Shown piece after piece: positions 9,827 to 44,880 of a DNA stretch of 64,000 nucleotides. A program made the position numbers and the translations under genes. The notes under the pieces are model-generated. The model was not told the DNA's origin. It made no database searches and was given only the letters and a program-made list of their open reading frames with translations. Position 1 is the first letter of the stretch. Each line of letters begins with the position of its first letter. Source of the DNA: Fluviirhizobium alvei (GTDB taxonomy: Bacteria > Pseudomonadota > Alphaproteobacteria > Rhizobiales > Rhizobiaceae); contig NZ_JAUOZU010000014.1 of the NCBI RefSeq assembly GCF_030551875.1, positions 1 through 64,000 of the forward strand, written 5' to 3'.

Positions 9827-9829
9827 ACC

Positions 9830-12765: not shown

Positions 12766-12780
12766 TGAACGGATGATACG

Positions 12781-20025: not shown

Positions 20026-20118
20026 ACCCGAAAAAGTACAAGTGATTTTGCCATTCTGTGCATGGAGGGCGGCGAGTTCAAGTCCTAATATCTTGATCAA
20101 CGTCAAAGGAGGAGTTGC

Positions 20119-21695: not shown

Positions 21696-22208
21696 ATGGA
21701 GGAGACGGTCTCGAAACTCGAATTCCGCGATGCGATGGCGCGGGTCTGCGCGCCGGTCAACGTCATCACCACCAACGGACCCGCCGGGCGCGGCGGCTTT
21801 ACCGCCACCGCCATGTGCAGTGTCACAGACGAGCCGCCGACGCTGCTCGTCTGCATGAACGGCAAATCGGCGCAATGCGGCCTTTTCCTCGAAAATCGTC
21901 GCTTCTGCGTCAATGTGCTCGCAAATGATCACCAGGAACTGGCCGGCTATTTTGCCGGCAAGCAGGCCGACATGGCCGCCCGGTATGCCGCCGCCAACTG
22001 GGTGGACATGCCCTCGGGCAGCGAGGCACTTGCCGATGCGATGGTGTCGTTCGACTGCCGACTGGTGGAAGCCAGGCTTGTCGGCACCCACCATATCTTC
22101 ATCGGCCAGGTGATCGGCATCCGCTCACGGCAGGATGGCAATGCCCTGCTCTATTTCGATCGCTCCTACGTCAACGTGCCGACGCAGGTTGGCAGCTTCG
22201 GGGGTTAA
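21696..22208 (+). CDS. hpaC: 4-hydroxyphenylacetate 3-monooxygenase, flavin reductase component
   Basis: 170 residues, flavin reductase-like (FMN-binding split barrel) domain across the whole protein: LEFRDAMARVCAPVNVITTNG, GGFTATAMCSVTDEPPTLLVCMN, FCVNVLANDHQELAGYFAGK, and HHIFIGQVIGI, the standard HpaC order. It reduces free FAD with NADH for HpaB. GAGGAGAAGG precedes ATG 21696. The stop TAA (22206-22208) overlaps the convergent stop of the orphan membrane protein gene in a shared TTAA. As the only hpaC in the window it may serve both HpaB copies. Confidence 0.92.
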   Translation: MEETVSKLEFRDAMARVCAPVNVITTNGPAGRGGFTATAMCSVTDEPPTLLVCMNGKSAQCGLFLENRRFCVNVLANDHQELAGYFAGKQADMAARYAAANWVDMPSGSEALADAMVSFDCRLVEARLVGTHHIFIGQVIGIRSRQDGNALLYFDRSYVNVPTQVGSFGG

Positions 22209-23080: not shown

Positions 23081-24013
23081 TCAGGCGTAGCGGGCCGCAT
23101 ACCAGGCCTTGAACAGGGCATACTGGTTTTCGAGATGGCGCTGCTGGCTGGCACTGAGCTTGTCGGTCTCGTTGAAATGCAGCGTATATTCGGTGTCGCC
23201 ATTCAGCACCATCAGATGCTTGTAGTGCAGAACGAGATCCGGACCTTCGTCATAGGTCGACAGAACCATCAGCGCTTCTTCAAGTTCGAGCGCTTCGCGA
23301 CGGGCCGCTGCATCGCCCTTGGCAGCCTTTTCGCACAGCGATACCAGATGCAGCACTTCCTTCGGCAGCGCATTGCCGATGCCGGTGATGGCACCACCTG
23401 CGCCGCAATTGACGAAGCCGTGATAGACGCCGGTATCGACGCCGACCATCAGCGTCAGCGCATCATCACCCGAGGTGATGTTTTCCGCCGCATAGGTCAT
23501 GTCCTTCTTGCCGCCGAATTCCTTGAAACCGACCAGATTGGAGAATTTCGAACGCAGATCGAAGAACAGATCGGCGCGGGTGGCAAAGCCATAGTAGGGG
23601 CTGTTGTAGATGACAGCCGGCAGATCCTTGGCAGCCGACAGGATGGCCGAGAAATGATCGCGCTGGGCTGAGACGGAGGTTCCACGCGACAGCACGCGCG
23701 GGATGACCATCAGGCCCTTGGCGCCCACCTTTGCAGCATGGGCGGCATGGCTGACGGCCGACTTGGTGTTGATCGCACCGGTGCCGACGACGACGGGAAC
23801 GCCGGCTTCGACGAGACGGCGCACGCCTTCCTGGCGTTCTTCGTCGGTGAGCAACGGCCAGTCGCCCATCGAGCCGCAATAGACGACGGCGGACATACCG
23901 GCAGAAATCAGTTCCTTGCCCTTGCGGACCAGGAGGTCGAAATTCGGCGTGCGGTCCGGGTTGCAAGGGGTCATGAGTGCGGGCATGCAGCCGCTGAATA
24001 CATTTGCCGTCAT
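23081..24013 (-). CDS. Dihydrodipicolinate synthase (DHDPS/NAL) family lyase or deaminase
   Basis: 310 residues, class I aldolase TIM barrel. It has the family lysine region VIYNSPYYGFATR (substrate-Tyr), FKEFGGKKD (Schiff-base Lys) and the entrance motif CGSMGDWPLLTDEER in place of the DHDPS GTTGE motif, so it is not a lysine-biosynthesis DapA. Members with the SMGD motif act on hydroxyproline-derived or sugar-acid-like keto compounds; the hydroxyproline route deaminase is one candidate. Two ATGs are close; AGGAG abuts 24019, so ATG 24013 is chosen. Last gene of the minus-strand set permease-ALDH-DHDPS, but with its own palindromic upstream site and terminator, so it may be separately controlled. 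Confidence 0.82.
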   Translation of the reverse strand: MTANVFSGCMPALMTPCNPDRTPNFDLLVRKGKELISAGMSAVVYCGSMGDWPLLTDEERQEGVRRLVEAGVPVVVGTGAINTKSAVSHAAHAAKVGAKGLMVIPRVLSRGTSVSAQRDHFSAILSAAKDLPAVIYNSPYYGFATRADLFFDLRSKFSNLVGFKEFGGKKDMTYAAENITSGDDALTLMVGVDTGVYHGFVNCGAGGAITGIGNALPKEVLHLVSLCEKAAKGDAAARREALELEEALMVLSTYDEGPDLVLHYKHLMVLNGDTEYTLHFNETDKLSASQQRHLENQYALFKAWYAARYA

Positions 24014-24058
24014 TGTCATCTCCTGCGTTTGCAGCGCCAGCCGCGTTTGATCTGATGC

Positions 24059-24074
24059 ATCTGATATATCAGAT
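24059..24074. promoter_or_regulatory. 16-bp perfect palindrome upstream of DHDPS-like gene
   Basis: ATCTGATATATCAGAT reads identically on both strands and lies 46 bp before the DHDPS-like start. The TGATATATCA core resembles GntR/FadR-type operators. No GntR gene is in the window; the cognate regulator is unknown. Confidence 0.55.
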
Positions 24075-24204
24075 TGAAATTCAGAAGTCCAGAGGGCTCT
24101 CTTTTTCATTTCCTAACGCATTAGACATCGCATTTTCAGGAGCTTGAAGGCATATTTTCTTGATATTTCAACTGGGCAAGACCGGGTTCTTTCGCACCAA
24201 CGCA

Positions 24205-24234
24205 AAAGGCCCTCTCCATCCGGAAAGGGCCTTT
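24205..24234 (-). terminator. Rho-independent terminator downstream of aldehyde dehydrogenase
   Basis: AAAGGCCCT (24205-24213) pairs perfectly with AGGGCCTTT (24226-24234), 12-nt loop. It lies 24 bp past the aldehyde dehydrogenase stop at 24258 on the minus strand, followed there by the T-rich TTTTGCG. Confidence 0.75.
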
Positions 24235-24257
24235 GATCAGGAGGATGTATGATCGCG

Positions 24258-25736
24258 TCAGAGCTGGATCCAGGCGGTCTTCAGATCGACATACTTGTCG
24301 AGCGCATGCAGCGACTTGTCATGGCCATTGCCGGATTGCTTGACGCCGCCGAGCGGCACCGTGTTGTCGCTACCGCCATAGGTATTGACATGGACGACGC
24401 CGGCCTTGATGCCACGCACCATGCGGTGCGCCCGCGACAGGTTCGAAGTCCAGACGGCTGAGGCGAGACCGTAATCGGTGGAATTGGCAATGCGCAGGGC
24501 CTCCTCCTCGCCATCGAAGGGGATGATCGCGAGAATCGGGCCAAACACCTCTTCCCTTGCGAGCGTCATCGTCGGTTCGACCTCGAAAACGGTAGGCTGC
24601 ATGAAGTAACCACCGGTTTCGGCGAAGATGCGCTGGCCGCCGGCCCTGAGGCGCGCGCCTTCGCCGAGAGCCTGTTCGGCATAGCCCAAATCCTTCAGTA
24701 GCTGGATCTCGCTCGAAACGGCGCCGGCTTCGGTCTTGAGATCGAGCGGATCACCGAGCTTCATCGACTGGGCGATCGCCGCTACCTTTTCGGAGAATTC
24801 GGCAAGGATGGAGCGCTCGACCAGCAGGCGCGAACCGGCAACGCAAACCTGTCCGGAATTGCGGAAGATACCATAGGCCGAGACCTTGGCGGCCTGATCG
24901 AGATCCGGCGCATCGGCAAAGACGATGTTGGGCGATTTGCCGCCGAGTTCGAGATAGACCCGCTTGAGATTGGATCGGGCCGAATATTCGAGCAGGCGCC
25001 GCCCGACCGGACCCGAACCGGTAAAGGCCAGCACATCGATATCCATATGCAGGCCCAGCGCCTCACCGGTCACCGCGCCGCGGCCCGTGACGACATTGAG
25101 AACACCTTCCGGCAGGCCCGCCTCGGCACAAATGGCTGCAAGCCTGAGGAGCGTGAGTGAGGCTCCCTCGGCGGGCTTGAGCACCACCGAATTGCCGGCC
25201 GCGAGCGCCGGCGCGATCTTCCAGGCGCCGATCATCATCGGGAAGTTCCAAGGCACGATGGCGGCGACGACACCCACCGGTTCGCGATGCACCAGACCGA
25301 GCACATTGCCGGCCGTGGGCGCAATCTCGCCATAGATCTTGTCGATCGCTTCGGCATAGTAGCGGAAGGTGCCCGCCGCACTTGCGGGTTCGGCTTTCAG
25401 CGCCATGGAAATTTCGGTGCCGTTGTCACGCACGCCCAGCACGGCGAGTTCGAGCGCATGTTTCTCGATCAGATCGGCGATCCTGAGCAACACCTTCTTG
25501 CGTTCTGCCGGCGCAGCCCTGGACCAGATGCCCTTGTCGAAGGCCGATCGCGCGGCCTTGACGGCGAGATCGACATCGTCGGCACCCGCATCTGCAATGG
25601 TCGTGAGCCGTCGCCCGTCGAGCGGCGAGATCACCTCCATGGTGGCGCCGCTTGCGGCTGGCGTCCAGCGTCCGCCGATGAACAGCGATTGCGTTTCCAC
25701 CGGCAGTTGGCGGAGTTGGTCGATCTTGTCCTGCAT
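24258..25736 (-). CDS. Aldehyde dehydrogenase, PuuC/aminoaldehyde type
   Basis: 492 residues. Motifs: VPWNFPMMIGAWKIAPAL (161-178), FTGSGPVGRRL (238-248), catalytic Glu264 in ELGGKSPN, nucleophile Cys298 in RNSGQVCVAGSR, and EEVFGPILAII. Residue pattern and the GGVKQSGNGHDKSLHALDKY C-terminus are like gamma-glutamyl-aminobutyraldehyde (PuuC) and other omega-aminoaldehyde dehydrogenases. Open frame extends 31 codons upstream, but GAGGAACGACGAG precedes ATG 25736. It lies 61 bp after the amino-acid permease on the same strand. It would oxidise the semialdehyde formed by the aminotransferase or phospho-lyase encoded across the divergent IclR promoter (inference). Confidence 0.88.
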   Translation of the reverse strand: MQDKIDQLRQLPVETQSLFIGGRWTPAASGATMEVISPLDGRRLTTIADAGADDVDLAVKAARSAFDKGIWSRAAPAERKKVLLRIADLIEKHALELAVLGVRDNGTEISMALKAEPASAAGTFRYYAEAIDKIYGEIAPTAGNVLGLVHREPVGVVAAIVPWNFPMMIGAWKIAPALAAGNSVVLKPAEGASLTLLRLAAICAEAGLPEGVLNVVTGRGAVTGEALGLHMDIDVLAFTGSGPVGRRLLEYSARSNLKRVYLELGGKSPNIVFADAPDLDQAAKVSAYGIFRNSGQVCVAGSRLLVERSILAEFSEKVAAIAQSMKLGDPLDLKTEAGAVSSEIQLLKDLGYAEQALGEGARLRAGGQRIFAETGGYFMQPTVFEVEPTMTLAREEVFGPILAIIPFDGEEEALRIANSTDYGLASAVWTSNLSRAHRMVRGIKAGVVHVNTYGGSDNTVPLGGVKQSGNGHDKSLHALDKYVDLKTAWIQL

Positions 25737-25797
25737 CTCGTCGTTCCTCAATTGGTGCGATGGCGGGCACAAGACCCGCCATCCGAAGTCGTTGCTA

Positions 25798-27249
25798 TCA
25801 GTTGTCCTGGCCGGCGCCCAGTCTTGCAAAGGCGGCCGGATCGGCAGCCTTCAGACGCGCCGCCAAAGCCAGTCCTATGACGCCAGCGATGACCACCAGC
25901 CCCGGCAGGACGATCGCGAGGACGCCATTCGCACCGGCAATCGCGCCAAAATCCACTGCAATCTTGTAGACGAGCGCAAGCAGGATGACACCGGTGATGA
26001 CCGGCAGAACCTTGGTCACGATCGCATTCTTCTCAAGGCCTGGGTTGCGGCTGAAGAACATCAGGATCGCAAAAGCGGTGAATGCCATCAGCAGGATGAT
26101 TGCGAGCGTACCGACATTGGTGAGCCAGGAGAACAGTGCCAGCACCGGATCCTGCCCGGTCACAGCAAACAGGGCCACTACCAGAATGGCAATCACGGTC
26201 TGGATGACGGAGCCGACATGCGGGCTCTGATATTTCGGATGCGTGACTCCAACACTTCTCGGCAGCAAGCCTTCGCGGCCGGCAACATAAATGTAGCGGG
26301 CGACGCCATTGTGAAAGGCCAGCACGCCGGCGAACAGGCTGGTGACCAGCAGGATGCCCATGATGGTGCCGATGCCGTGACCGACATAGCGATCCGCCAG
26401 GATGAACAGGAAGGTGGTGGGGTCCTGCAGGCCCTGCAGTTCGGGCACCAGCTTGTCGACACCGGCACCGTTGACCATCAGCCAGGAGGTGAGCATGTAG
26501 AAGAGGCCGATGATGAGCACCGAGATATAGGTGGCGCGCGGCACGGTCTTGTGCGGTTCGCGAGCCTCTTCGCTGTAGATCGTGGTGGCTTCAAAGCCGA
26601 TGAAAGCGGCAAAGCAGAACAGGATACCGATTGCCGGCACGCCGCTCATGAAGGCTGTAGGCGTGAACGGCGCCATCGAAAGTCCGCTATCGCCACCGGT
26701 TGTAACGATTGCCGCATCGATGACGAGCACGACGAGATATTCGAGAATGACGAGGATCGTCAGAACCTTCGCCGAGAGATCAACCCGGCGGTAGCCGAAC
26801 ACTGCAACGATGGCAATGCCGATATAGGTCCAGACCCACCAGGGCATTTCCAGTCCCCAGCCGGCGAAAAGTCCGGATGTGGCCGCGCCGAACAGGCCGA
26901 AGACGCCAATCTGCATGGCATTATAGGCCAGAATGGCGATCATGGCAGCAGCGCCACCCATCATGCCACCCAGTCCCTGGGCGGTATAGGCGTAGAAGGC
27001 GCCCGCATTGCGGATATGCCGCGCCATGGCGACATAGCCGACGGCAAACAGGATCAGGATAACGGTGACCAGAAGGAAGGTCAGCGGAATGCCCACGCCA
27101 TTGCCGAGCAGCATGGCCAGCGGTACGCCGCCAGCGACCGCTGTCAAAGGCGCGGCGGCAGAAACCACCAGAAAGGTAACGGCGCTGACGCCGAGACTGT
27201 TTTTGCGCAGCTGGTTGTCACCGCTGGCTTGTGTGCCTGAATTGCTCAT
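25798..27249 (-). CDS. APC-superfamily amino acid/amine permease
   Basis: 483 residues with about 12 membrane helices. The family start SLGVSAVTFLVVSAAAPLTAVAGG (unwound TM1 region) and GAFYAYTAQGLGGMMGG, plus EEAREPHKTVPRATYIS after TM6, are hallmarks of APC amino-acid permeases. It imports an amino acid or amine into the cytoplasm. First gene of the minus-strand operon; the promoter region is shared with the divergent iclR gene and holds tandem inverted-repeat boxes. Substrate is unknown; the adjacent transaminase, phospho-lyase and kinase suggest a hydroxylated or omega-amine amino acid. Confidence 0.88.
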   Translation of the reverse strand: MSNSGTQASGDNQLRKNSLGVSAVTFLVVSAAAPLTAVAGGVPLAMLLGNGVGIPLTFLLVTVILILFAVGYVAMARHIRNAGAFYAYTAQGLGGMMGGAAAMIAILAYNAMQIGVFGLFGAATSGLFAGWGLEMPWWVWTYIGIAIVAVFGYRRVDLSAKVLTILVILEYLVVLVIDAAIVTTGGDSGLSMAPFTPTAFMSGVPAIGILFCFAAFIGFEATTIYSEEAREPHKTVPRATYISVLIIGLFYMLTSWLMVNGAGVDKLVPELQGLQDPTTFLFILADRYVGHGIGTIMGILLVTSLFAGVLAFHNGVARYIYVAGREGLLPRSVGVTHPKYQSPHVGSVIQTVIAILVVALFAVTGQDPVLALFSWLTNVGTLAIILLMAFTAFAILMFFSRNPGLEKNAIVTKVLPVITGVILLALVYKIAVDFGAIAGANGVLAIVLPGLVVIAGVIGLALAARLKAADPAAFARLGAGQDN

Positions 27250-27362
27250 ATCGCTTAAGCTCCCCTTTGGCGTTGCGATCTTAACCGTCGCCCGAAAACG
27301 ACGATCCTCCAGTTAGAACCTGCTGCCGATTTTGTTGTTGTTCTTGGCAGTGCAGTTCGCTA

Positions 27363-27398
27363 CGGTTCAAATATTGAACCTTCGCTTCAAATATAGAC
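27363..27398. promoter_or_regulatory. Tandem IclR-type operator in the permease/iclR divergent promoter
   Basis: GGTTCAA (27364-27370), ATA, TTGAACC (27374-27380) is a perfect 7-3-7 inverted repeat. A diverged copy, CGCTTCAAATATAGAC, starts exactly 20 bp later (27383-27398). Two boxes two helical turns apart fit cooperative binding by the IclR dimer encoded at 27524 (inference). Confidence 0.6.
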
Positions 27399-27523
27399 TT
27401 GCAAAATGCCATATCACCTGTCAAGTTATTTCGCATGTTAAGTATCTAGGCGCCGCCAGAAGCGCACTTGACAGGTGGGCAACCACCAGAGCCGGGCGTC
27501 AAAACCCGGCAGACGAGGAAAAA

Positions 27524-28312
27524 ATGGGAACGATCAGTAAGGCGCTGACATTGCTGGACACGCTGTCGCTCATGGAGAAGGATGCCGGCCTCACCGAGGT
27601 CGCGACCGCCTGTGGGCTGGACAAGGCGACGACCAGGCGATTCCTGGTCGAGCTTGAGAAGCATGGCTTCGTCGAGCAGGTCGCAGACAGTCGAAAGTAC
27701 CGATTGGGTTCAGCACCCGTCAGGCTCGGACGCATTCGCGAAGCCCGCTATCCGTTTCTCAAGACCGCCCTGCCCTTTGTACGGCAATTGATGGAGGAAA
27801 GCGGCGAAACGGTTCATCTGTCGGAATATTCCGGCGGGCGCCTTTCGACCGTCCATGTCGAGGATTCGACCAAGGCCCATCGCGTCTTCATCGCCATCGG
27901 CACCCTGTTGCCATTTCATGCCACGGCTTCAGGCCTCGCTTTCATCGCCGCCTGTCCCGACAAGGATGTCGAAGCAGCACTTGCTTTGCCCCTTACTGCC
28001 TACACCGACCACACGACCCGCGACGCAGCCTCTTTCCGCAAGGCGGTCGAGCAGACGCGGCGCGATGGCTATTCCGTCAATCGCCAGGGCATGGAAATCG
28101 GCGTGTTCAGCACTTCGGCGGCAATCGCTGCACCGGGCGCCCGACCGATCGGCTGCGTTACCGTCGCAGCCCCCCTGGCGCGCACCGATCCCGATACCAT
28201 TCGCAAGCATGGGGAGGCAGCCGCAGCGGCCGCCAGACGGATTTCACAAGCATTTTTCGGCGCTGACCGCAAGGAACCGGCTGCGCTGCAAGAAGGGAGA
28301 AAATCGGGATGA
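27524..28312 (+). CDS. IclR-family transcriptional regulator
   Basis: 262 residues. Winged HTH at residues 3-65 (ALTLLDTLSLMEKDAGLTEV, TTRRFLVELEKHGFVEQ) and the IclR effector domain from about residue 75 (PFVRQLMEESGETVHLSEY, AIGTLLPFHATASGLAFIA, VNRQGMEIGVFSTSAAI). The frame is open for 64 codons upstream through the promoter region, but GAGGAA lies 5 nt before ATG 27524. Its stop overlaps the next gene by 4 bp (ATGA), so it is cotranscribed with the plus-strand operon while facing the divergent permease operon. It probably controls both from the tandem operator at 27363-27398. Confidence 0.9.
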   Translation: MGTISKALTLLDTLSLMEKDAGLTEVATACGLDKATTRRFLVELEKHGFVEQVADSRKYRLGSAPVRLGRIREARYPFLKTALPFVRQLMEESGETVHLSEYSGGRLSTVHVEDSTKAHRVFIAIGTLLPFHATASGLAFIAACPDKDVEAALALPLTAYTDHTTRDAASFRKAVEQTRRDGYSVNRQGMEIGVFSTSAAIAAPGARPIGCVTVAAPLARTDPDTIRKHGEAAAAAARRISQAFFGADRKEPAALQEGRKSG

Positions 28313-29562
28313 GCCAAACGGCGCAAAGGCCCAGAATTTTGGTCATCGGTACGGGTGACACGAAGAGCGACGAACTGAACTTCATGGCTGGCAAGATTTC
28401 GGAAGCCGGCGGCGAAGCCATCATGGTCGATGTCAGCGTGCTGGGCGATCCGCCCTACGTACCGGAATATTCCAAGCATGACATCGCCTTTGCGGCCGAA
28501 ACAACCATAGAGGACATCATCGGCAGCGGCGACGAAAATACATCCATGGCGCTGATGGCGAAGGGCGCCTGCAACCTCATACGTACGCTTCATGACGAAG
28601 GGCTGATGGACGGGATGATCGCGCTTGGCGGCTCCATGGGCACCGATCTGGCGCTCGATGTCGCCGCTGTTTTACCGCTCGGCGTCCCGAAATTCGTGGT
28701 CTCCACGATCGCCTATTCGCATCTTTTGCCGCCCGAGCGGATCGCGCCCGACCTGATGATGATCCTCTGGGCCGGCGGTCTCTACGGGCTCAACGATATC
28801 TGCAGTTCGGTTCTGTCGCAGGCCTGTGGCGCTGTCGTGGGTGCGGCCAAGCATGGCACGCGCCCGAAGGGCGACCGGCCGCTGATCGGCATGACTTCGC
28901 TCGGCTCTTCCTGCCTCAAATACATGAAATATCTCCGGCCCGAGCTGGAACGCCGCGGCTATGACGTGGCGGTCTTCCATGCAACCGGCATGGGCGGCCG
29001 CGCCTTCGAGGCCATCGCGGCGCAGAAGGGCTTTGCCGCCGTCTTCGATTTCTGCATTCAGGAAATCTCCAACCACCATAACGGCACTGTCGTCACCTCC
29101 GGCCCGGACCGGATGGAAAATGCCGGTCGCTTCGGTATTCCGCAGATCGTGGCACCGGGTGCAGTCGATATGGTGGATCTGCAGGCCTGGCGCCCCCTGC
29201 CCGACCGTTTCGCCGAACGGCCCTTCCATGCCCATAACCGCCTGATCGCTTCGGTCACCACCGATCCGAATGGACGTCGCGAGATTGCCCGCGTCATCGG
29301 CGAGAAACTGGCAGCGGCTCATTCGCCCGTCGCCTTCATCCTGCCCGTCCGGGGCATCCAGGAATGGGACCAGGAGGGTGAGCCGCTCTATGAGCCCGAG
29401 GCGCTCGACGCCTTCGTCGACGCCATGCGTCAGGCCGTGCCGGCCAAGGCACGCTATGAGGAAATCGACGCCCATATCAATGCACCCGAATTTGCTGCCA
29501 AGGCACTCGAGATTCTCGATGCCTGGGTGGATCAGGGACTGGTTGCGAAAGGACGCCCATGA
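28309..29562 (+). CDS. Tm-1-like ATP-binding protein, UPF0261 family
   Basis: 417 residues, the whole UPF0261/Tm-1-like fold: N-terminal GTGDTKSDELNFMAGKI (residues 14-30), then DGMIALGGSMGTDLA and MTSLGSSCLKYMKYLRPELE, and the second half with PQIVAPGAVDMVDL and FILPVRGIQEWDQEG. Tm-1 in tomato uses this domain to bind ATP and block tobamovirus replication; bacterial members have no agreed function and often sit in catabolic operons. It lies between the IclR gene and a HAD gene, with 4-bp overlaps on both sides, so a metabolic role linked to the aminotransferase/kinase genes is likely. Confidence 0.85.
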   Translation: MSQTAQRPRILVIGTGDTKSDELNFMAGKISEAGGEAIMVDVSVLGDPPYVPEYSKHDIAFAAETTIEDIIGSGDENTSMALMAKGACNLIRTLHDEGLMDGMIALGGSMGTDLALDVAAVLPLGVPKFVVSTIAYSHLLPPERIAPDLMMILWAGGLYGLNDICSSVLSQACGAVVGAAKHGTRPKGDRPLIGMTSLGSSCLKYMKYLRPELERRGYDVAVFHATGMGGRAFEAIAAQKGFAAVFDFCIQEISNHHNGTVVTSGPDRMENAGRFGIPQIVAPGAVDMVDLQAWRPLPDRFAERPFHAHNRLIASVTTDPNGRREIARVIGEKLAAAHSPVAFILPVRGIQEWDQEGEPLYEPEALDAFVDAMRQAVPAKARYEEIDAHINAPEFAAKALEILDAWVDQGLVAKGRP

Positions 29563-30218
29563 GCAACGACAATTCTAAAAAGGCGCTGATTCTCGATTTC
29601 GGCGGCGTCGTTACCCGGACCCTCTTCGAAACCCACGATGTGACCGAACGTGCCCTGAGCCTTCCGCCGGGAAGCCTGACCTGGCGCGGTCCGTTCGATC
29701 CGTCGACCGATCCGCTCTGGGTCAGCATGCAGAACCGCGAGATTACCGAACGCGATTACTGGATGACCCGCACCCGCGAAGTCGGCGAACAGCTCGGCGA
29801 GACCTGGACCGACATGAAGACCTTCGTCCAGCGCGCCCGTGGCGCCGAGCCGGAGCTGGTGCTGCGGCCAGAAGCGCGTGACGCGATCCTCAAGACCAAG
29901 GCGGCGGGGGTGAGACTCGCCATCCTGTCGAACGAACTCGACCTGTTCTATGGCGTCGAGTTCCGCAAGCGCTTTCCGCTGATCGATCTCTTCGATGTCA
30001 TCGTCGATGCGACCTACACACAGATCCTCAAGCCCGATCCGCGCGCCTATGAGCTGGTGCTCGCCGAACTCGGGCTCGACCGCGAGAACTGCGTCTTCGT
30101 CGACGACCAGAAAAAGAACATCGAGGGCGCCGTCGCCGTCCATTTGCCGCATGTGCATTTCGACGTCACCCGCCCTGCCGAAGGCTACCACCGCGCACTA
30201 GCGATGCTCGGACTCTGA
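29559..30218 (+). CDS. HAD-superfamily protein with Gly in place of the acid/base Asp
   Basis: 219 residues, HAD subfamily IA. Motif I is LDFGGVV (residues about 12-18): the nucleophilic Asp is present but the second Asp of DxD is Gly, so phosphatase turnover would need another acid. Motif II LSN, motif III KPDPRAY, and motif IV FVDDQKKNIEGA are intact. The DFGGV form is common among epoxide-hydrolase-like and dehalogenase-like HAD proteins. It overlaps the UPF0261 gene by 4 bp. In a cluster with a kinase it could act on a phosphorylated intermediate, but the motif I change makes that unsure. Confidence 0.82.
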   Translation: MSNDNSKKALILDFGGVVTRTLFETHDVTERALSLPPGSLTWRGPFDPSTDPLWVSMQNREITERDYWMTRTREVGEQLGETWTDMKTFVQRARGAEPELVLRPEARDAILKTKAAGVRLAILSNELDLFYGVEFRKRFPLIDLFDVIVDATYTQILKPDPRAYELVLAELGLDRENCVFVDDQKKNIEGAVAVHLPHVHFDVTRPAEGYHRALAMLGL

Positions 30219-30244
30219 AACAACCGAAACTATGAGGAACCCCC

Positions 30245-31603
30245 ATGCGTGAGACCAATTTCCTGATCGAGAACAATGCCCGCCACATGTGGCACCCGAT
30301 GGCGCATCCTGCCGAGATGCAAGCCAATCCACCCCATATCGTCCAGGCGGCCAAGGGCGTCGAAGTCACCGATGTCGAAGGCAAGACGCTGCTCGATGCG
30401 GTCGGCGGCCTGTGGAACGTCAATCTCGGCTATTCCTGCGAGCCGGTGAAGCAGGCCATCCGCGACCAGCTCGATGCGCTGCCCTATTATTCGACCTTCC
30501 GCGGCACCTCGACCGACACGGCGATCGAGCTTTCCTATGAACTGGCCGAATGGTTCAAGACGGATGGCCTGACGCGTGCCTTCTTCACGTCGGGCGGTTC
30601 CGATTCGGTCGAGACTGCCCTTCGGCTTGCCCGCCAGTATCACAAGATCAACGGCCAGCCGGAGCGCACCAAGTTCGTGGCGCTCAAGAAGGGCTATCAC
30701 GGCACCCATTTCGGCGGCGCCTCCGTCAATGGCAATGCGAATTTCCGCCGCAACTACGAGCCGCTGCTGCCGGGCGTGTTCCATCTCGCCGCTCCCTACA
30801 GCTACCGCAACCCCTTCAACACCACTGATCCGGCGGAAATCGCCCAGGCAATCGCCCGCCAGTTCGAGGACGAGATCGCCTTCCAGGGCGCCGATACGAT
30901 CGCGGCCATGATCATGGAGCCGGTTCTGGGGTCGGGTGGCGTCATCGTTCCACATGAGACATTCATGCCGCTGATGCGCGCGATCTGCGATCGCCACGGC
31001 ATTCTGCTGATCGCCGACGAAGTGATCACCGCCTTTGGCCGTACCGGCGCCTGGACCGGATCGCGCGGCTGGGGTGTGAAGCCGGACCTGATGTGTACGG
31101 CGAAAGCCATCACCAACGGCTATTTCCCGTTCGGTGCCGTAATGATCGCCGAAAAGGTCGCCGCCGTGTTCGAAGGATCGAAGGGTGCGGTCGGCTCGAT
31201 CGGCCATGGCTACACCTATTCCGGCCATCCGGTTGGTGCTGCCGCAGCCCTCGCAACGCTCAAGGAAACGAACCGGCTTAACGTGGCCGCCAATGCCGCA
31301 GCCCGTGGCGCCGAGCTTCTTGCCGGCCTTGAAGACCTGAAGGCCAAGCACGAACTCGTCGGCGATGTCCGTGGTCGCGGTCTGATGTGCGCGCTCGAAC
31401 TCGTCTCCGACCGCAAGACCAAGGCAGGCGCCGCCAAGGATACGGTCCAGAAAGTCTTCGACACGGCCTATGCCGAGGGCGTCATGATCCGCACCTCGGG
31501 TTACAACGTCATCATCTCGCCGCCGCTCGTCATCACCGCCGATGATGTATCGCGGATCGTTTCTGCACTCGACGCCGGGCTTACCGCCGCCGGAGGGAAA
31601 TGA
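30245..31603 (+). CDS. Class III aminotransferase (omega-amino acid:pyruvate/polyamine type)
   Basis: 452 residues, fold-type I PLP enzyme. It has FFTSGGSDSVETALRLARQY, YHGTHFGGASVNGN, the cofactor Asp in LIADEVITAFGRTG, and the Schiff-base Lys in CTAKAITNGYFPFGAV. These features are those of omega-amino acid--pyruvate and putrescine-type transaminases (TIGR/SpuC-like group). GAGGAA precedes ATG 30245. Followed by a second class III enzyme after 1 bp. It transfers an amino group from an omega-amino or diamino compound to pyruvate, giving a semialdehyde that the divergent aldehyde dehydrogenase could oxidise (inference). Confidence 0.88.
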   Translation: MRETNFLIENNARHMWHPMAHPAEMQANPPHIVQAAKGVEVTDVEGKTLLDAVGGLWNVNLGYSCEPVKQAIRDQLDALPYYSTFRGTSTDTAIELSYELAEWFKTDGLTRAFFTSGGSDSVETALRLARQYHKINGQPERTKFVALKKGYHGTHFGGASVNGNANFRRNYEPLLPGVFHLAAPYSYRNPFNTTDPAEIAQAIARQFEDEIAFQGADTIAAMIMEPVLGSGGVIVPHETFMPLMRAICDRHGILLIADEVITAFGRTGAWTGSRGWGVKPDLMCTAKAITNGYFPFGAVMIAEKVAAVFEGSKGAVGSIGHGYTYSGHPVGAAAALATLKETNRLNVAANAAARGAELLAGLEDLKAKHELVGDVRGRGLMCALELVSDRKTKAGAAKDTVQKVFDTAYAEGVMIRTSGYNVIISPPLVITADDVSRIVSALDAGLTAAGGK

Positions 31604-31604
31604 G

Positions 31605-32891
31605 GTGAGCGACAAGACCGCGCTTCTTGCCCGTCGCCAACGTCTTCTCGGCCCCAACATGTCAACCTTCTACGACGACCCCGTGCATATCGTGCGGGGA
31701 GAAGGTGTGTGGCTCTGGGATGCCGACGGGCGCAAATATCTCGACTGCTACAACAATGTGCCACATGTCGGCCATTGTAATCCGCGCGTTGTGGAGGCCA
31801 TCTGCAGTCAGGCCTCGACGCTCAATACCCACACGCGTTACCTGCATGAGGGTATTCTCGACTATGTCGAGCGCCTGACGGCAACCTTCGAGGAACCCCT
31901 GAAGACGGCAATCCTGACCTGTACCGGCTCTGAGGCGAATGATATCGCGCTGCGGATGGCCGAAGCCATGACCGGCAAGCGCGGCATCATCGCCACCGAC
32001 GCCACCTATCACGGCAACACGACGCTGGTCAGCCATCTGTCGAAGAGCAATGTGCCGGAAGTGGGCTTCGGTCTGGGCCAGTATCTCAGCCATGTCGAAG
32101 CGCCGGACAGCTACCGCATCGCCGATCCTGACGGGCAGCGCTTTGCCGCAAAGGTGCAGGAAGCGATCGACGATCTCGAACAGCGCGGCATCGGCTTTGC
32201 AGCACTGATCGTCTGCCCCCTCTTTCTCAACGAGGGCTTCCCGACGCAGGCAGAGGGCTGGCTGAAACCGGCCGCCGAAGCTGTCCGGCGCGCTGGAGGC
32301 CTGCTGATCTGCGATGAGGTCCAGTCCGGTTTCGGCCGCTCAGGCAGCCGTTTCTGGGCCCACCAGAAGCAGGGCGTGGTTCCCGACATCGTCACCATGG
32401 GCAAGCCGATGGGCAATGGCCATCCGGTTGCGGGGCTGGTCACCAGCACCGAAATCATGACCCGCTTCCGAAAATCCTTCCGGTACTTCAACACGTTCGG
32501 TGGCAATCCCGTCAGTACGGCCGCAGCCATGGCCGTGCTCGAGGAACTGCAGGAGAAGAACCTGCAGGCCCACGCCGCAAGGATGGGCAAACTGGCCCGT
32601 GAGCGTCTGAGCCAGCTTGCCGGAAAGTACGAAATAATTGGCGATGTCCGCCAGTCCGGCATGGTGTTCGGCGCCGAATTCGTCCTCGACCGGGAAACAA
32701 AGGAACCGGCGGTCGCCTTCACGGACAGGGTCGTCAACCGGATGCGCGAGCGCGGCATCATTCTGTCGAAGCTCGGTCGCCACAAGAATACCCTGAAGAT
32801 CCGGCCACCGATGCCCTTTGCCGAGGAGCATCTCGATCTCCTGATGACCACGCTCGATGCGGTGATCGCTGAAACGCTGGAGGCGGCATGA
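31605..32891 (+). CDS. Class III aminotransferase-fold enzyme, phospho-lyase-like (ETNPPL/PHYKPL type)
   Basis: 428 residues from a GTG start at 31605, chosen because GGAGGG lies 8 nt upstream and the longer frame to 31542 overlaps the previous gene. The N-terminal block PVHIVRGEGVWLWDADGRKY, then NVPHVGHCNP and LNTHTRYLHEGILDYVERL, closely follows the pattern of vertebrate AGXT2L proteins, which are ethanolamine-phosphate and 5-phosphohydroxylysine phospho-lyases. PLP residues: TCTGSEANDIAL, ICDEVQSGFGRSG, and Lys in TMGKPMGNGHP. The next gene, with a 4-bp overlap, is an APH-type kinase, as expected for a kinase plus phospho-lyase pair. A true aminotransferase cannot be excluded. Confidence 0.75.
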   Translation: MSDKTALLARRQRLLGPNMSTFYDDPVHIVRGEGVWLWDADGRKYLDCYNNVPHVGHCNPRVVEAICSQASTLNTHTRYLHEGILDYVERLTATFEEPLKTAILTCTGSEANDIALRMAEAMTGKRGIIATDATYHGNTTLVSHLSKSNVPEVGFGLGQYLSHVEAPDSYRIADPDGQRFAAKVQEAIDDLEQRGIGFAALIVCPLFLNEGFPTQAEGWLKPAAEAVRRAGGLLICDEVQSGFGRSGSRFWAHQKQGVVPDIVTMGKPMGNGHPVAGLVTSTEIMTRFRKSFRYFNTFGGNPVSTAAAMAVLEELQEKNLQAHAARMGKLARERLSQLAGKYEIIGDVRQSGMVFGAEFVLDRETKEPAVAFTDRVVNRMRERGIILSKLGRHKNTLKIRPPMPFAEEHLDLLMTTLDAVIAETLEAA

Positions 32892-33817
32892 CCCTGCCGG
32901 TGGATGCATCGCTTTGCGCATGGGGTCTCGAAGGCGCGCCCTGCTCCTTCGTCGCCGGCCGGGAAAACCAGGTTTTTCGGGTAACGACAAAGGCGGGCGA
33001 TTTCGCGCTCAGGATCAAGCGGCCCGGCTATCGCGATGAAGCCGAGCTTGTTTCCGAACTGAACTGGTTGCAGGCGATGGAACGGGCGGGGCTGCGAGTG
33101 CCGCGCCCGCTTCCATCACGCGCCGGACGCCTGCTCGAAAAGATCGACGCCTATCATGTCGACATGGTCAGCTGGCTGCCCGGCAAACCGCTGGGCAAGA
33201 GCCGGCAGCCGCTCGAACTGGCCGACCGATGCGGTACGGTTTTCGCTATCGGCGAAACCATGGCGCGCCTGCATGCGGCGTGCGACAGCTGGCAGCGCCC
33301 GGACGGTTTCAAGCGTTGCCACTGGGATCTCGAGGGACTGCTGGGCGAGGCTCCGCTATGGGACCGTTTCTGGGACAATCCCTCGCTCTCGGATGCGACG
33401 CGTGCCCTCTTCGTTCGCTTTCGGAACCAGGCCCGCGACCGGTTGACGGATTTGGCGCCCTCTCTCGATTACGGATTGATCCACGCCGATCTGGTTCGCG
33501 AAAACGTTCTTCTCGACGGCGGCAGGATTGCGCTGATTGATTTCGATGACGGTGGCTTCGGTTTTCGCGCGTTCGATGTGGCGACGGTGTTGCTGAAGAA
33601 CAGGGCCGAGCCGGATTATGCCGATCTCAGGGCGGCTCTCATCGAAGGCTATGCCAGCGTCCGGTCGCTCGATCTTGCCAATCTCGATCTCTTCCTCGCG
33701 CTCAGGGCCCTGACCTATGTCGGCTGGATCATCACGCGCATGCATGAGCAAGGCGGCATCGAACGTAACGAACGTTTCGTGATCGAGGCCGAAAGCCTGT
33801 GTGAGGCCCTGTGCTGA
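32888..33817 (+). CDS. APH-fold kinase (hydroxylysine kinase/homoserine kinase II-like phosphotransferase)
   Basis: 309 residues, aminoglycoside-phosphotransferase/choline-kinase fold. Brenner's motif HADLVRENVLL (His199, Asp201, Asn206) and the metal-binding Asp218 in IDFDDGGFGF are intact; the glycine-rich and lysine region FRVTTKAGDFALRIKRP is at residues 30-46. Homologues phosphorylate hydroxyl groups of small amino compounds, including hydroxylysine kinase (HYKK). Overlaps the phospho-lyase-like gene by 4 bp, and is convergent with hpaR. I infer it phosphorylates the hydroxyl that the phospho-lyase then eliminates. Antibiotic resistance is unlikely in this setting. Confidence 0.8.
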   Translation: MTLPVDASLCAWGLEGAPCSFVAGRENQVFRVTTKAGDFALRIKRPGYRDEAELVSELNWLQAMERAGLRVPRPLPSRAGRLLEKIDAYHVDMVSWLPGKPLGKSRQPLELADRCGTVFAIGETMARLHAACDSWQRPDGFKRCHWDLEGLLGEAPLWDRFWDNPSLSDATRALFVRFRNQARDRLTDLAPSLDYGLIHADLVRENVLLDGGRIALIDFDDGGFGFRAFDVATVLLKNRAEPDYADLRAALIEGYASVRSLDLANLDLFLALRALTYVGWIITRMHEQGGIERNERFVIEAESLCEALC

Positions 33818-33824
33818 GCGGAGG

Positions 33825-34298
33825 TCAGGCGCCCTCGTTGAAGGTCGAAACCTCGTCGAGAAGATCGAGCAGCAAATCGATCTTCTCGCGACCAAACTGC
33901 TTCTCGAGGCGATCGTAGATGAGGCGGCTCTCCGGTGCGACCTCGTTGATGATTGCCATGCCCGCAGGCGTGATCTTCAGCAGGACGCGGCGACCGTCAT
34001 TCTCGTCCTTGAGCTTGGCAATGATGCCGCGTTCTTCGAGCGAACGGATAATGCGCGTGAGGCTGGGCGCCAGGATGAAGGCCTTGTCGGCCATCTCGGA
34101 AGCATCGACCGTCTCCTGCTCGGCGAGAAGACGAATGACCCGCCACTGCTGTTCGGTAATGTCATGCGCGCTCAGCATCGGCCGAAAATGGCTCATCACA
34201 GCTTCACGGGCACGCAACAGTGCGATCGGCAAAGAACGCCGCGTGTTGCGTGGCAGAAAGGCATCCTGGGCGAGTTTGTTTTTCGGAGCGTCGGTCAT
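33825..34298 (-). CDS. hpaR: MarR-family repressor HpaR
   Basis: 157 residues, single MarR winged-helix domain: NTRRSLPIALLRAREAVMSHFRP-type start (residues 18-40), EQQWRVIRLLAEQETVDASE, recognition helix LAPSLTRIIRSLEERG, and wing DGRRVLLKITPAG. The opening RRSLPIALLRAREA is the HpaR hallmark. It represses homoprotocatechuate operons and is released by 4-HPA or homoprotocatechuate in E. coli. Divergent from hpaF-I with 128 bp between starts, and the palindrome at 34390 lies between. AAGGA precedes ATG 34298. A second copy of the operator sits before hpaD at 7079. Confidence 0.9.
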   Translation of the reverse strand: MTDAPKNKLAQDAFLPRNTRRSLPIALLRAREAVMSHFRPMLSAHDITEQQWRVIRLLAEQETVDASEMADKAFILAPSLTRIIRSLEERGIIAKLKDENDGRRVLLKITPAGMAIINEVAPESRLIYDRLEKQFGREKIDLLLDLLDEVSTFNEGA

Positions 34299-34426: not shown

Positions 34427-34819
34427 ATGCCCCACTTCACGATGGAATATTCCGCCAATCTCGATGGCGCGGTGGACTTTGCGGATCTGTGCCGTCTGGT
34501 GCACAAGGTGATTCTCGACACCGGCCTGTTCGAACTCGGCGCCGTGCGGGTGCGCGCCATTCGCTGCGAGGCCTATGCGGTGGCAGACCTGCTGGCAGAG
34601 AACGGCTTCATCGATATGTCCTTCCGTGTCGGCAAGGGTCGCAGCGAAGAGGATCGCAAACGCACGGGCGATGCGATCTTTGCCGCCGTTACCGACTTCC
34701 TCAAGCCGCAATTTGCCACGCCGCATTTCGCGTTGACACTCGAGATCCGCGAGATCGACCCCGTGCTGAGCTGGAAGAAGAACGCCATCCACCCGCGGCT
34801 GCGCGCCCAGGGCGCCTGA
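34427..34819 (+). CDS. hpaF: 5-carboxymethyl-2-hydroxymuconate delta-isomerase
   Basis: 130 residues, tautomerase fold (CHMI). Pro2, which becomes the catalytic N-terminal base after Met removal, starts MPHFTMEYSANL, and Arg residues RVRAIRCEAY and FRVGKGRSEEDRKRTG follow the family pattern. It isomerises 5-carboxymethyl-2-hydroxymuconate to 5-oxo-pent-3-ene-1,2,5-tricarboxylate in the cytoplasm. GGGAGG lies 5 nt before ATG 34427. First gene of the hpaF-E-D-G-H-I operon and closest to the HpaR operator. Confidence 0.92.
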   Translation: MPHFTMEYSANLDGAVDFADLCRLVHKVILDTGLFELGAVRVRAIRCEAYAVADLLAENGFIDMSFRVGKGRSEEDRKRTGDAIFAAVTDFLKPQFATPHFALTLEIREIDPVLSWKKNAIHPRLRAQGA

Positions 34820-34889: not shown

Positions 34890-36404
<1,515 letters not shown>

Positions 36405-36424: not shown

Positions 36425-37405
36425 ATGGCTCTGCCGACCCCCAATCTCTACCCGCCCTTCAACATCGTGCGCCTGAGCCATGTCGAGTTCGGCGTCACCG
36501 ATCTTGCCAAGTCGCGCGCCTTCTATGTCGATACGCTCGGCCTGCAGGTGACCGACGAAACCTCCGACGCGATCTATCTGCGCGCCATGGAGGAACGCGG
36601 TCATCACTGCATCGTGCTGCGCAAGTCCGACAAGGCCGAAGCCCGCGACCTCGGCTTCAAGGTCTATGACGAGGACGAACTCGACAAGGCGGCGAAATTC
36701 TTCGACGCCAAGGGCCTCGGTGTCGAATGGGTCGAGAGGCCCTATCAGGCCCGCACGTTCCGCACCCGCGACCCGCACGGCACGCCGCTCGAATTCTATT
36801 CGAAGATGGACCGTCTGCCGCCGATCCATCAGAAATACGCGCTCTACAAGGGTGTGAAGCCGCTCCGCATTGACCATTTCAACTGCTTCTCGCCGAATGT
36901 CGATGAAAGCGTGGCCTTCTATAACGAAATCGGCTTCCGGGTGACGGAATATACCGCCGACGAGGAAACCGGTCGTCTCTGGGCAGCCTGGACCCACCGC
37001 AAGGGCGGTGTGCATGACATCGCCTTTACCAATGGCCGCGGTCCGCGCCTGCACCACACCGCCTTCTGGGTGCCGACGCCGCTCAACATCATCGACCTGC
37101 TCGATCTGATGTCGACCACCGGCTGGCTGCCGAACATCGAACGCGGCCCCGGCCGCCACGGCATCTCGAACGCCTTCTTCCTTTATGTCCGCGATCCCGA
37201 TGGCCATCGTATCGAGATCTACTGCTCGGATTACCAGACGGTCGATCCCGATCTCGAACCGATCAAGTGGGACCTCAAGGATCCGCAGCGCCAGACGCTG
37301 TGGGGGGCGCCTGCCCCGCGCTCCTGGTTCGAGGAAGGCAGCCTGTTTGCCGGCGCCGATGTCCGGGAATCCGATCTCAAAGCGCAACCGATCATCGCGC
37401 CCTGA
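36425..37405 (+). CDS. hpaD: 3,4-dihydroxyphenylacetate 2,3-dioxygenase, class I (VOC) extradiol type
   Basis: 326 residues with two VOC modules (about 15-125 and 150-280) and a C-terminal tail. Metal ligands of the HPCD family are visible: His in RIDHFNCF, His in LHHTAFWV and Glu in RIEIYCSDY. The tail WGAPAPRSWFEEGS matches the Arthrobacter/Brevibacterium homoprotocatechuate dioxygenases. It cleaves the same ring as the class III enzyme encoded at 6195 but is of unrelated fold, so the window holds two non-homologous enzymes for one step. GAGGAGGAAC precedes ATG 36425. Within the hpaF-I operon, 20 bp after hpaE. Confidence 0.92.
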   Translation: MALPTPNLYPPFNIVRLSHVEFGVTDLAKSRAFYVDTLGLQVTDETSDAIYLRAMEERGHHCIVLRKSDKAEARDLGFKVYDEDELDKAAKFFDAKGLGVEWVERPYQARTFRTRDPHGTPLEFYSKMDRLPPIHQKYALYKGVKPLRIDHFNCFSPNVDESVAFYNEIGFRVTEYTADEETGRLWAAWTHRKGGVHDIAFTNGRGPRLHHTAFWVPTPLNIIDLLDLMSTTGWLPNIERGPGRHGISNAFFLYVRDPDGHRIEIYCSDYQTVDPDLEPIKWDLKDPQRQTLWGAPAPRSWFEEGSLFAGADVRESDLKAQPIIAP

Positions 37406-39154: not shown

Positions 39155-39162
39155 GATTGACC

Positions 39163-44685: not shown

Positions 44686-44834
44686 GCAATGCTCCAATGG
44701 TCACGGGGTCTCTGCAAGGCAAGCATTAACCCAGCCAATGTGCCGAAAGACAAGAAGGTTGCTGCGGTGAGATCGGGACCGCAGGGGCGGATCGCTTTCG
44801 CCCTGTCCTTGTCCCGCCCCGATGGCGCGACAGG

Positions 44835-44861: not shown

Positions 44862-44880
44862 GGCCGTCCGCGCAAACGCC

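What the first reader, a model, noticed from the sequence alone, without database searches (positions are those of the whole stretch)
23081..33817. Kinase plus phospho-lyase-like cluster with UPF0261 and HAD proteins: a candidate hydroxylysine or amino-alcohol pathway
An APH kinase gene overlaps a class III enzyme with the sequence pattern of vertebrate ethanolamine-phosphate/5-phosphohydroxylysine phospho-lyases. Around them are a second transaminase, an aminoaldehyde dehydrogenase, an APC permease, a DHDPS-fold enzyme, a UPF0261 protein and a HAD protein, all about one IclR promoter. In animals hydroxylysine is phosphorylated, then eliminated to aminoadipate semialdehyde and oxidised. A bacterial operon with all three activities plus two uncharacterised families would be a good place to learn what UPF0261 does.
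Basis: partly seen in the sequence, partly recalled or inferred. Interest (0 to 1): 0.78.

Follow-up and report, generated by a model that had tools for sequence, protein, structure and literature searches.

The report
Aromatic amino-alcohol pathway feeding homoprotocatechuate genes
A tight bacterial operon joins an amino-alcohol kinase, a phosphate-removing lyase, a transaminase and a protein of a family now linked to phenol kinases, and it sits inside the genes for 4-hydroxyphenylacetate breakdown, so it most likely lets soil and marine bacteria eat octopamine- and noradrenaline-like amines rather than hydroxylysine.

Summary
The genes are as described: a packed operon IclR-UPF0261-HAD-class III aminotransferase-class III phospho-lyase-APH kinase (27.5-33.8 kb), divergent from an APC permease and an ALDH. 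The phospho-lyase is closest to the proven phospho-lyases 5g4i (A1RDF1) and human ETNPPL. This recurs: hpa genes lie within 10 kb in 31 of 80 named orthologous loci and in 0 of 33 control loci with other phospho-lyases. Some loci also carry an aromatic amino-acid decarboxylase, MoaF or a flavin N-demethylase-like gene. The UPF0261-HAD-aminotransferase-ALDH-permease set also occurs beside hpa without kinase or lyase. UPF0261's best sequence match among solved structures is Saro_1862 with bound acetovanillone, which I infer is the phenol kinase MarK. Best reading: an upper pathway for 4-hydroxyphenethylamines. Tyramine/dopamine would go through the transaminase, octopamine/noradrenaline through kinase plus phospho-lyase. 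Both would enter arylacetaldehyde, ALDH and hpa, with UPF0261/HAD adding and removing a phenol phosphate. Hydroxylysine is not supported. No activity has been shown; the substrates are inferred from context.

The parts
27524..28312 (+). IclR-family regulator, first gene of the operon
   Evidence: Pfam HTH_IclR and IclR_C; start; the ORF listing gives 27332 as the longest start
28309..29562 (+). UPF0261 protein; proposed phenol (aryl-OH) kinase of the Saro_1862/MarK kind
   Evidence: Pfam UPF0261 N and C domains, NCBIfam PRK02399.1-4 over cut-off; best solved sequence relative 9mpy, with bound acetovanillone; AF2 model pLDDT 94.3
29559..30218 (+). HAD-superfamily protein; proposed aryl-phosphate phosphatase
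   Evidence: Pfam Hydrolase and HAD_2; all 44 HAD loci also have the aminotransferase and 42 have UPF0261
30245..31603 (+). class III aminotransferase (PRK07481 type); proposed tyramine/dopamine transaminase
   Evidence: NCBIfam PRK07481.1 over cut-off; nearest solved enzyme by score is omega-transaminase 5lh9
31605..32891 (+). class III PLP phospho-lyase; proposed elimination of phosphate and ammonia from an O-phospho aryl amino alcohol
   Evidence: 5g4i 5.1e-114 and 6tor 1.3e-99; GTG start shortly after a GGAGGG-like site
32888..33817 (+). APH-fold kinase; proposed amino-alcohol (benzylic OH) kinase
   Evidence: Pfam APH; catalytic HxDxxxxN in 73 of 73 relatives; my loose pattern for the second (metal) motif matched 42 of 73
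24258..25829 (-). aldehyde dehydrogenase (PuuC/StyD/KauB-like), proposed arylacetaldehyde oxidation
   Evidence: the NCBIfam scores shown are below their cut-offs; 54 of 80 named loci
25798..27249 (-). APC permease, proposed amine uptake; many relatives have TctABC-type transporters instead
   Evidence: Pfam AA_permease_2; APC 18, TctC 33, TctA 28 of 80; Tct families confirmed on L084
23081..24109 (-). DHDPS-fold enzyme, linked here but not part of the conserved set
   Evidence: Pfam DHDPS, 2hmc/4mpq/5czj
19144..20040 (-). HpaA-like AraC-type regulator
   Evidence: TIGR02297 HpaA 137.6 bits, below its cut-off 274.65
20119..21684 (+). HpaB-like 4-hydroxyphenylacetate 3-monooxygenase, oxygenase part
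   Evidence: TIGR02310 771.5 bits, below cut-off 885.2
21696..22208 (+). HpaC/RutF-like flavin reductase
   Evidence: RutF 189.5 and HpaC 152.8 bits, both below their cut-offs
33825..34298 (-). HpaR homoprotocatechuate operon regulator
   Evidence: TIGR02337 over cut-off
34427..34819 (+). HpaF, 5-carboxymethyl-2-hydroxymuconate isomerase
   Evidence: Pfam CHMI 3.8e-47
34890..36404 (+). HpaE dehydrogenase
   Evidence: TIGR02299 over cut-off
36425..37405 (+). HpaD 3,4-dihydroxyphenylacetate 2,3-dioxygenase
   Evidence: TIGR02295 over cut-off
37484..38347 (+). HpaG-like isomerase/decarboxylase
   Evidence: TIGR02303 167.5 bits, below cut-off 276.4
38351..39154 (+). HpaH hydratase
   Evidence: TIGR02312 over cut-off
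39157..39969 (+). HpaI aldolase
   Evidence: TIGR02311 over cut-off
17455..18231 (-). MoaF protein (family recalled from the Klebsiella monoamine regulon)
   Evidence: Pfam MoaF and MoaF_C; the link to monoamines is recalled, not from a call
18249..19037 (-). short-chain dehydrogenase beside MoaF
   Evidence: Pfam adh_short; same protein cluster in 14 loci, window included

Best explanation
The operon is an upper catabolic pathway that turns 4-hydroxyphenethylamines into 4-hydroxyphenylacetate or 3,4-dihydroxyphenylacetate for the hpa genes around it. For compounds with a beta-hydroxyl (octopamine, noradrenaline) the APH kinase phosphorylates the benzylic hydroxyl. The class III enzyme then eliminates phosphate and ammonia to give the arylacetaldehyde, as ethanolamine-phosphate and 5-phosphohydroxylysine lyases do with H2N-CH2-CH(OP)-R. 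Compounds without that hydroxyl (tyramine, dopamine) go to the same aldehyde through the transaminase. The ALDH oxidises the aldehyde. UPF0261 phosphorylates the ring hydroxyl, as its relative MarK is taken to do with acetovanillone, and the HAD protein removes that phosphate. Masking the phenol would keep the benzylic phosphate from leaving through a quinone methide, and would trap the amine in the cell. Shown by sequence: gene content, families, operon packing, recurrent linkage to hpa, modularity. Inferred: every substrate, the order of steps, and the roles of UPF0261 and HAD.
For: Families and packing. Phospho-lyase nearest to 5g4i and ETNPPL. hpa genes on both sides, HpaD, E, H, I and R over curated cut-offs. 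hpa genes within 10 kb: 31 of 80 named loci, 5 of 7 order-level orthologues, 0 of 33 control phospho-lyase loci. HpaD over cut-off anywhere in the genome: 63 of 80 named genomes (34 of 45 named plus 29 of 35), against 39 of 297 in the order sample. In that sample 15 of 17 genomes with UPF0261 at 48% identity or more have HpaD, against 24 of 280 others (Fisher 4e-13; three genomes with UPF0261 at 35-36% are among the others). Genomes with only other phospho-lyases have it in 15 of 77, or 11 of 73 without those carrying UPF0261. The placing of hpa relative to the lyase differs among lineages. The 7 fetched loci with aminotransferase plus UPF0261 but no lyase have hpa genes near: L164-L167, L169 and L171; L168 has HpaD about 19 kb away. 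An aromatic amino-acid decarboxylase-like gene is in 10 of 80 loci (one representative identified); MoaF in 6 of 80 and the window. UPF0261 matches Saro_1862 with acetovanillone. UPF0261 lies directly beside the kinase, same strand, in 23 of 71 loci and beside HAD in 30 of 71; in L084 lyase, kinase and UPF0261 overlap by 4 bases each.
Against: No enzyme activity is known to me for any member. 49 of 80 named loci show no hpa gene within the stretch held, at most 10 kb each side and less on short contigs. 17 of 80 genomes have no TIGR02295 HpaD over cut-off. Of 11 of these tested further, 2 have HpaE over cut-off (L096, L156), 3 only below it (L101, L120, L121) and 6 none (L087, L095, L098, L104, L110, L137); only L096 has the other HpaD family. 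The remaining 6 were not tested. TctABC transporters are named for acids, which fits a cationic amine poorly. UPF0261 is shared by the transaminase-only and lyase-only versions, so its step must be common to both; phenol phosphorylation fits but is not shown. Foldseek gives Tm-1 a higher TM-score than 9mpy (up to 0.75 against 0.57-0.59). The 82 lyase orthologues group together, but with local support of only 0.215. ALDH and HAD families are too broad to fix a substrate, and the HAD proteins lack the second Asp of the usual DxD motif (42 of 44 read LDFGGV). The 297-genome background is one order, not a matched control for the Rhodobacterales and others among the 80, and relatedness inflates all counts.
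Confidence: 0.6

Rival explanations
1. Hydroxylysine, ethanolamine or 1-amino-2-propanol pathway: the kinase and lyase handle an aliphatic amino alcohol and the hpa linkage is a coincidence of location.
For: Known chemistry of this enzyme family (5g4i, 6tor). HGLS for aminoadipate breakdown is in the genome.
Against: hpa linkage recurs in several arrangements and was not seen in 33 control phospho-lyase loci. UPF0261 is aromatic-linked. A separate PRK06149 protein (1473 bits) exists in the genome. HGLS is on another contig.
Confidence: 0.12
2. The natural substrates are N-methylated (synephrine, adrenaline) and the operon works after an N-demethylase; octopamine and noradrenaline are intermediates.
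For: DMGDH-like FAD/folate enzyme in 8 of 80 named loci and in L033, beside UPF0261 in 9 of 71 loci; an OYE-type flavoenzyme beside UPF0261 in L033 and L170.
Against: These genes were not found in most loci, including the window. Both families are broad.
Confidence: 0.2
3. Only the transaminase branch (tyramine/dopamine) belongs to the hpa pathway; the kinase and lyase are a passenger pair for another amino alcohol sharing the ALDH.
For: The base module occurs without kinase and lyase next to hpa in L164-L167, L169 and L171.
Against: Lyase and kinase also sit with UPF0261 and hpa where no aminotransferase was found (L106), and next to hpa with neither in view (L105, L162; short contigs). Lyase, kinase and UPF0261 overlap in L084. 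The lyase orthologues have specific invariant residues.
Confidence: 0.12

Closest known systems
5g4i phospho-lyase (A1RDF1 of Arthrobacter aurescens, name recalled) and vertebrate ETNPPL/PHYKPL with hydroxylysine kinase
   Same: Class III PLP fold, best-scoring solved relatives; an APH kinase as partner
   Different: hpa and UPF0261 neighbours; residues T135, N210, E211, F213, P214, H254, R290 (counted from window base 31602) set the orthologues apart from 33 other bacterial phospho-lyases; proposed aromatic substrate
Fused proteins PRK06148 and PRK06149 (kinase/M23/phospho-lyase, make-up recalled)
   Same: Same two activities predicted; highest NCBIfam profiles for the lyase (484 and 400 bits)
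   Different: Window genes are separate and below both cut-offs; the genome has its own PRK06149 protein elsewhere
MarK of Novosphingobium aromaticivorans (Hall et al. 2025; seen only as a reference entry and as described in the introduction of PMC13101465) and Saro_1862 (9mpy)
   Same: UPF0261 family; 33 of the 38 residues invariant in A3 are kept in 9mpy (compared by eye on the alignment)
   Different: 31% identity; other gene partners here (transaminase, lyase, ALDH, hpa); that Saro_1862 is MarK is my inference
Hpe/Acv pathways for hydroxyacetophenones
   Same: Phenol phosphorylation, side-chain chemistry, then a phosphatase (passages of PMC9618137; introduction of PMC13101465)
   Different: There the kinase is a two-component dikinase related to rifampin phosphotransferase (abstract and passages of PMC12167813) and the side-chain step is carboxylation
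Aromatic biogenic amine catabolism via homoprotocatechuate in Pseudomonas (Cuskey and Olsen 1988; Arcos et al. 2010; both seen only as reference entries)
   Same: Phenethylamines funnelled to 3,4-dihydroxyphenylacetate (by their titles)
   Different: Known entry enzymes are oxidases or dehydrogenases and an unsequenced octopamine dehydratase (all recalled); I recall no kinase/phospho-lyase route

Membership tests
Class III phospho-lyases (ETNPPL/PHYKPL/A1RDF1) | Aminotran_3 fold, closer to proven phospho-lyases than to transaminases | tested here: met
   385 and 337 bits against 187 for the next solved enzyme
Class III phospho-lyases (ETNPPL/PHYKPL/A1RDF1) | Partner small-molecule kinase | tested here: met
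   APH kinase overlapping by 4 bases; kinase in 77 of 80 named loci
Class III phospho-lyases (ETNPPL/PHYKPL/A1RDF1) | Phosphate and ammonia release without transamination | not testable with these tools
   needs assay
Hydroxylysine degradation cluster | Linked aminoadipate semialdehyde/aminoadipate catabolic genes | tested here: not met
   The annotated neighbours are hpa genes; the one marker searched for, HGLS, is on contig 15 and the window on contig 6; other aminoadipate genes were not searched for
Hydroxylysine degradation cluster | Kinase specific for 5-hydroxylysine | not testable with these tools
   needs assay
Homoprotocatechuate (hpa) catabolic cluster | Ring-cleavage and lower-pathway enzymes HpaD, E, F, G, H, I with HpaR | tested here: met
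   HpaD, E, H, I, R over curated cut-offs, HpaF by Pfam; HpaG below its cut-off
Homoprotocatechuate (hpa) catabolic cluster | HpaBC 4-HPA 3-hydroxylase | tested here: inconclusive
   HpaB 771.5 of 885.2 bits; the HpaC-like gene scores higher as RutF; all below cut-off
MarK-type UPF0261 phenol kinase | Both UPF0261 domains with the family's invariant residues | tested here: met
   which of these residues act in catalysis is not known to me
MarK-type UPF0261 phenol kinase | ATP-dependent phosphorylation of a phenol | not testable with these tools
   needs assay
Fused kinase/phospho-lyase (PRK06148/PRK06149) | Single polypeptide over curated cut-off | tested here: not met
   separate genes, scores below cut-off

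The most novel reading that the evidence does not exclude
A doubly phosphate-dependent route for catecholamine-like compounds: UPF0261 puts a phosphate on the ring hydroxyl, the APH kinase puts a second one on the benzylic hydroxyl, and a dedicated phospho-lyase clade removes phosphate and ammonia, giving the molecular identity of bacterial octopamine/noradrenaline deamination and making UPF0261 a general phenol kinase of aromatic catabolism.
Probability: 0.35. Interest if true: 0.85.

Novelty: new variant of a known kind. Interest (0 to 1): 0.7.

Why it matters
If right, it gives genes to an activity that biochemists saw decades ago without sequence (octopamine dehydratase, recalled), extends the phospho-lyase reaction from aliphatic to aromatic amino alcohols, and places the uncharacterised UPF0261 and HAD proteins in a testable phosphorylation cycle. 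It would explain how root and marine bacteria use plant and animal signalling amines (octopamine, tyramine, noradrenaline), and would give a marker to find that ability in genomes.

Tried and rejected
Hydroxylysine/ethanolamine as substrate: considered first, set aside because of the hpa linkage. DHDPS as a pathway member: rejected, seen in 3 of the loci examined. [quoted passage not shown] Structure model of the lyase from 8 sequences: poor (pLDDT 63.5), not used. Paper searches: exact phrases for an octopamine/synephrine dehydratase, synephrinase, octopamine hydrolyase, octopamine kinase or octopamine catabolism gave 0 papers. Broader searches listed nothing by title describing a kinase/phospho-lyase route, but showed only the first 20 of 412, 20 of 44, 20 of 501 and 7 of 7. 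All cover open-licence PMC papers only. UPF0261 gave 5 papers, none on a bacterial enzyme function by title. The lyase tree did not strongly support the ortholog clade (0.215). Gene-caller counts (lyase in 83 loci) miss a few genes that tblastn finds (80 of 80 named loci); tblastn counts are used for the named loci. An earlier count said 7 of 7 order loci carry the ALDH; one search shows 6 of 7 (not L033).


Full report
What is there. The window holds a compact six-gene operon on the + strand: IclR regulator, UPF0261, HAD, class III aminotransferase, class III phospho-lyase-like enzyme and APH kinase (about 27524-33817). The genes overlap by 4 bases or lie 1-26 bases apart. Divergent from it are an APC permease, an ALDH and a DHDPS-fold enzyme. 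The lyase start is a GTG at 31605, one base after the aminotransferase stop codon, which ends at 31603. Among solved proteins the lyase is nearest to the phospho-lyase 5g4i and human ethanolamine-phosphate phospho-lyase 6tor, well ahead of any transaminase.

Both flanks are homoprotocatechuate genes: HpaA-like, HpaB-like and HpaC-like genes on the left, and HpaR, HpaF, HpaE, HpaD, HpaG-like, HpaH and HpaI on the right. HpaR, E, D, H and I pass their curated cut-offs; HpaA, B, C and G do not. A MoaF gene and a short-chain dehydrogenase lie further left. I recall MoaF from the monoamine-inducible regulon of Klebsiella; no call confirms that (one search listed no paper with the word MoaF among its first 20).

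Conservation. In 297 genomes of the order, 85 have some relative of the lyase at E 1e-60 or better, but only 8 (window included) reach about 60% identity. I took up to 20 kb around the 7 others and around 33 of the lower-scoring phospho-lyase places as controls; the controls were mostly the higher-scoring of more than 100 such rows, and one is the own genome's second copy. All 7 carry UPF0261, aminotransferase and kinase orthologues, 6 the ALDH, 4 HAD and 4 APC. None of the 33 controls has UPF0261 at E 1e-15, and only aminotransferases of 35-36% identity are seen, in two of them. By tblastn, 77 of 80 have the kinase, 55 UPF0261, 54 the ALDH, 53 the aminotransferase, 34 HAD, 18 APC, 33 TctC and 28 TctA. 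Several loci are short contigs, so these are minima.

Link to hpa. One or more hpa genes lie within 10 kb of the lyase in 31 of 80 named loci (28 have two or more), in 5 of 7 order orthologues and in 0 of 33 controls. The arrangement differs among lineages: downstream same strand 23, upstream opposite strand 4, upstream same strand 1 of the 28 loci where hpaD, E, G or H could be placed. HpaD over cut-off anywhere in the genome: 34 of the 45 named genomes (which also held two order genomes, one with HpaD) plus 29 of 35, so 63 of 80, against 39 of 297 in the order sample. Within that sample, genomes with UPF0261 at 48% identity or more have HpaD in 15 of 17 against 24 of 280 (Fisher 4e-13; the identity limit was chosen, and three genomes at 35-36% were counted as without), and lyase-orthologue genomes in 6 of 8 against 33 of 289 (8e-5). 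Genomes with only other phospho-lyases have it in 15 of 77; leaving out the four that carry UPF0261, 11 of 73, which is background. Of 13 genomes without a TIGR02295 match over the cut-off (11 named, plus those of L032 and L038), 4 have HpaE over cut-off and 2 the other HpaD family. Six further named genomes without HpaD were not tested that way. Relatedness inflates all these counts, and the order sample is not a matched background for the Rhodobacterales and others among the 80.

Modules. Twelve UPF0261 loci without an orthologous lyase were fetched. L164-L167 carry IclR, UPF0261, HAD, aminotransferase, APC and ALDH beside hpa, with no kinase or lyase in the stretch. L168, L169 and L171 have UPF0261 and aminotransferase, with hpa genes in view or, for L168, about 19 kb away. 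The other five are looser: L170 has UPF0261 with TctC, TctA and an OYE-type flavoenzyme; L172-L175 share little. Conversely the lyase and kinase occur with UPF0261 and no aminotransferase in view in L094, L097, L100, L102 and L106, and next to hpa with neither in view in L105 and L162, which are short contigs. So there is a base module (transaminase branch) and an add-on (kinase plus lyase), with UPF0261 common to both. HAD is seen only with the aminotransferase, 44 of 44, and with UPF0261 in 42 of 44. UPF0261 is directly beside the kinase in 23 of 71 loci and beside HAD in 30 of 71, same strand, within 60 bases.

Extra genes that point to aromatic amines. A decarboxylase gene in 10 of 80 loci is, by its representative in L130, of the DOPA/tyrosine decarboxylase kind: best solved relative 7xin, DOPA decarboxylase, 2.4e-116. 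A DMGDH-like FAD/folate enzyme in 8 of 80 and in L033 suggests N-demethylation. MoaF is in 6 of 80 and the window.

UPF0261. Its model (59 sequences, pLDDT 94.3) matches 9mpy, 'Saro_1862, a UPF0261 domain protein from Novosphingobium aromaticivorans with bound acetovanillone', and Tm-1. 9mpy is first by E-value in sequence and fold searches, while Tm-1 chains have the higher TM-scores. [quoted passage not shown] The MarK paper is not held. That Saro_1862 is MarK is my inference from the organism and the ligand. Of the 38 residues invariant in the 59 UPF0261 sequences, 33 are the same in Saro_1862 (by eye). This makes UPF0261 a candidate phenol kinase, and gives HAD a natural role as aryl phosphatase, as HpeD has in the Hpe pathway (passages). 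The HAD proteins lack the second Asp of the usual DxD motif (LDFGGV in 42 of 44), so phosphatase activity is not certain.

Mechanism proposed. The lyase family acts on H2N-CH2-CH(OP)-R (from the known substrates ethanolamine-phosphate and 5-phosphohydroxylysine; chemistry recalled, reference entry seen). With R = 4-hydroxyphenyl the substrate is O-phospho-octopamine, and the product is the aldehyde that ALDH and hpa would consume. A free para hydroxyl would make a benzylic phosphate unstable, so ring phosphorylation first is chemically sensible. Everything after 'gene families and linkage' is inference.

The lyase clade. Residues T135, N210, E211, F213, P214, H254 and R290 (counted from window base 31602) are kept in at least 79 of 82 orthologues and in under 10% of the 33 controls; I take them to lie near the active site by homology (recalled, not modelled). 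The tree puts the 82 together without any control, but with weak local support.

Verdict.

Noticed in passing
window 7166-11425: AraC regulator, ALDH and GMC oxidoreductase trio; a similar-looking trio lies in L168 (16208-19998), next to a base module without lyase (seen by eye).
   Followed up: no
window 11509-16107 and 41404-46059: Two branched-chain-type ABC transporter sets flank the hpa region, each with a Peripla_BP_6 binding protein.
   Followed up: no
window 22205-22909: Membrane protein with a YLATT domain (Pfam YEATS-Like-Associating Three TM) between hpaC and the DHDPS gene.
   Followed up: no
window 46111-47763: Amidohydrolase (Amidohydro_3), 62% identical to one in L154, whose protein cluster is in five lyase loci. 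Could release amines from plant amides.
   Followed up: partly
L053 11397-14312: The same genome has a PRK06149 protein (1473 bits), the fused kinase/phospho-lyase kind, on another contig.
   Followed up: partly
L163 744-2081; also L089, L096, L102, L129, L137, L139, L157: A glutamine-synthetase-like gene and a cytochrome P450-like gene recur together in eight lyase loci; role unknown.
   Followed up: partly
L168 13206-14591: A HemL-like class III transaminase (PRK07046) follows the ALDH, where several relatives have the phospho-lyase.
   Followed up: no
L170 7553-10827: UPF0261 directly beside an OYE-type flavoenzyme and Tct transporter genes, without transaminase or lyase in view: possibly another UPF0261 pathway.
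   Followed up: partly
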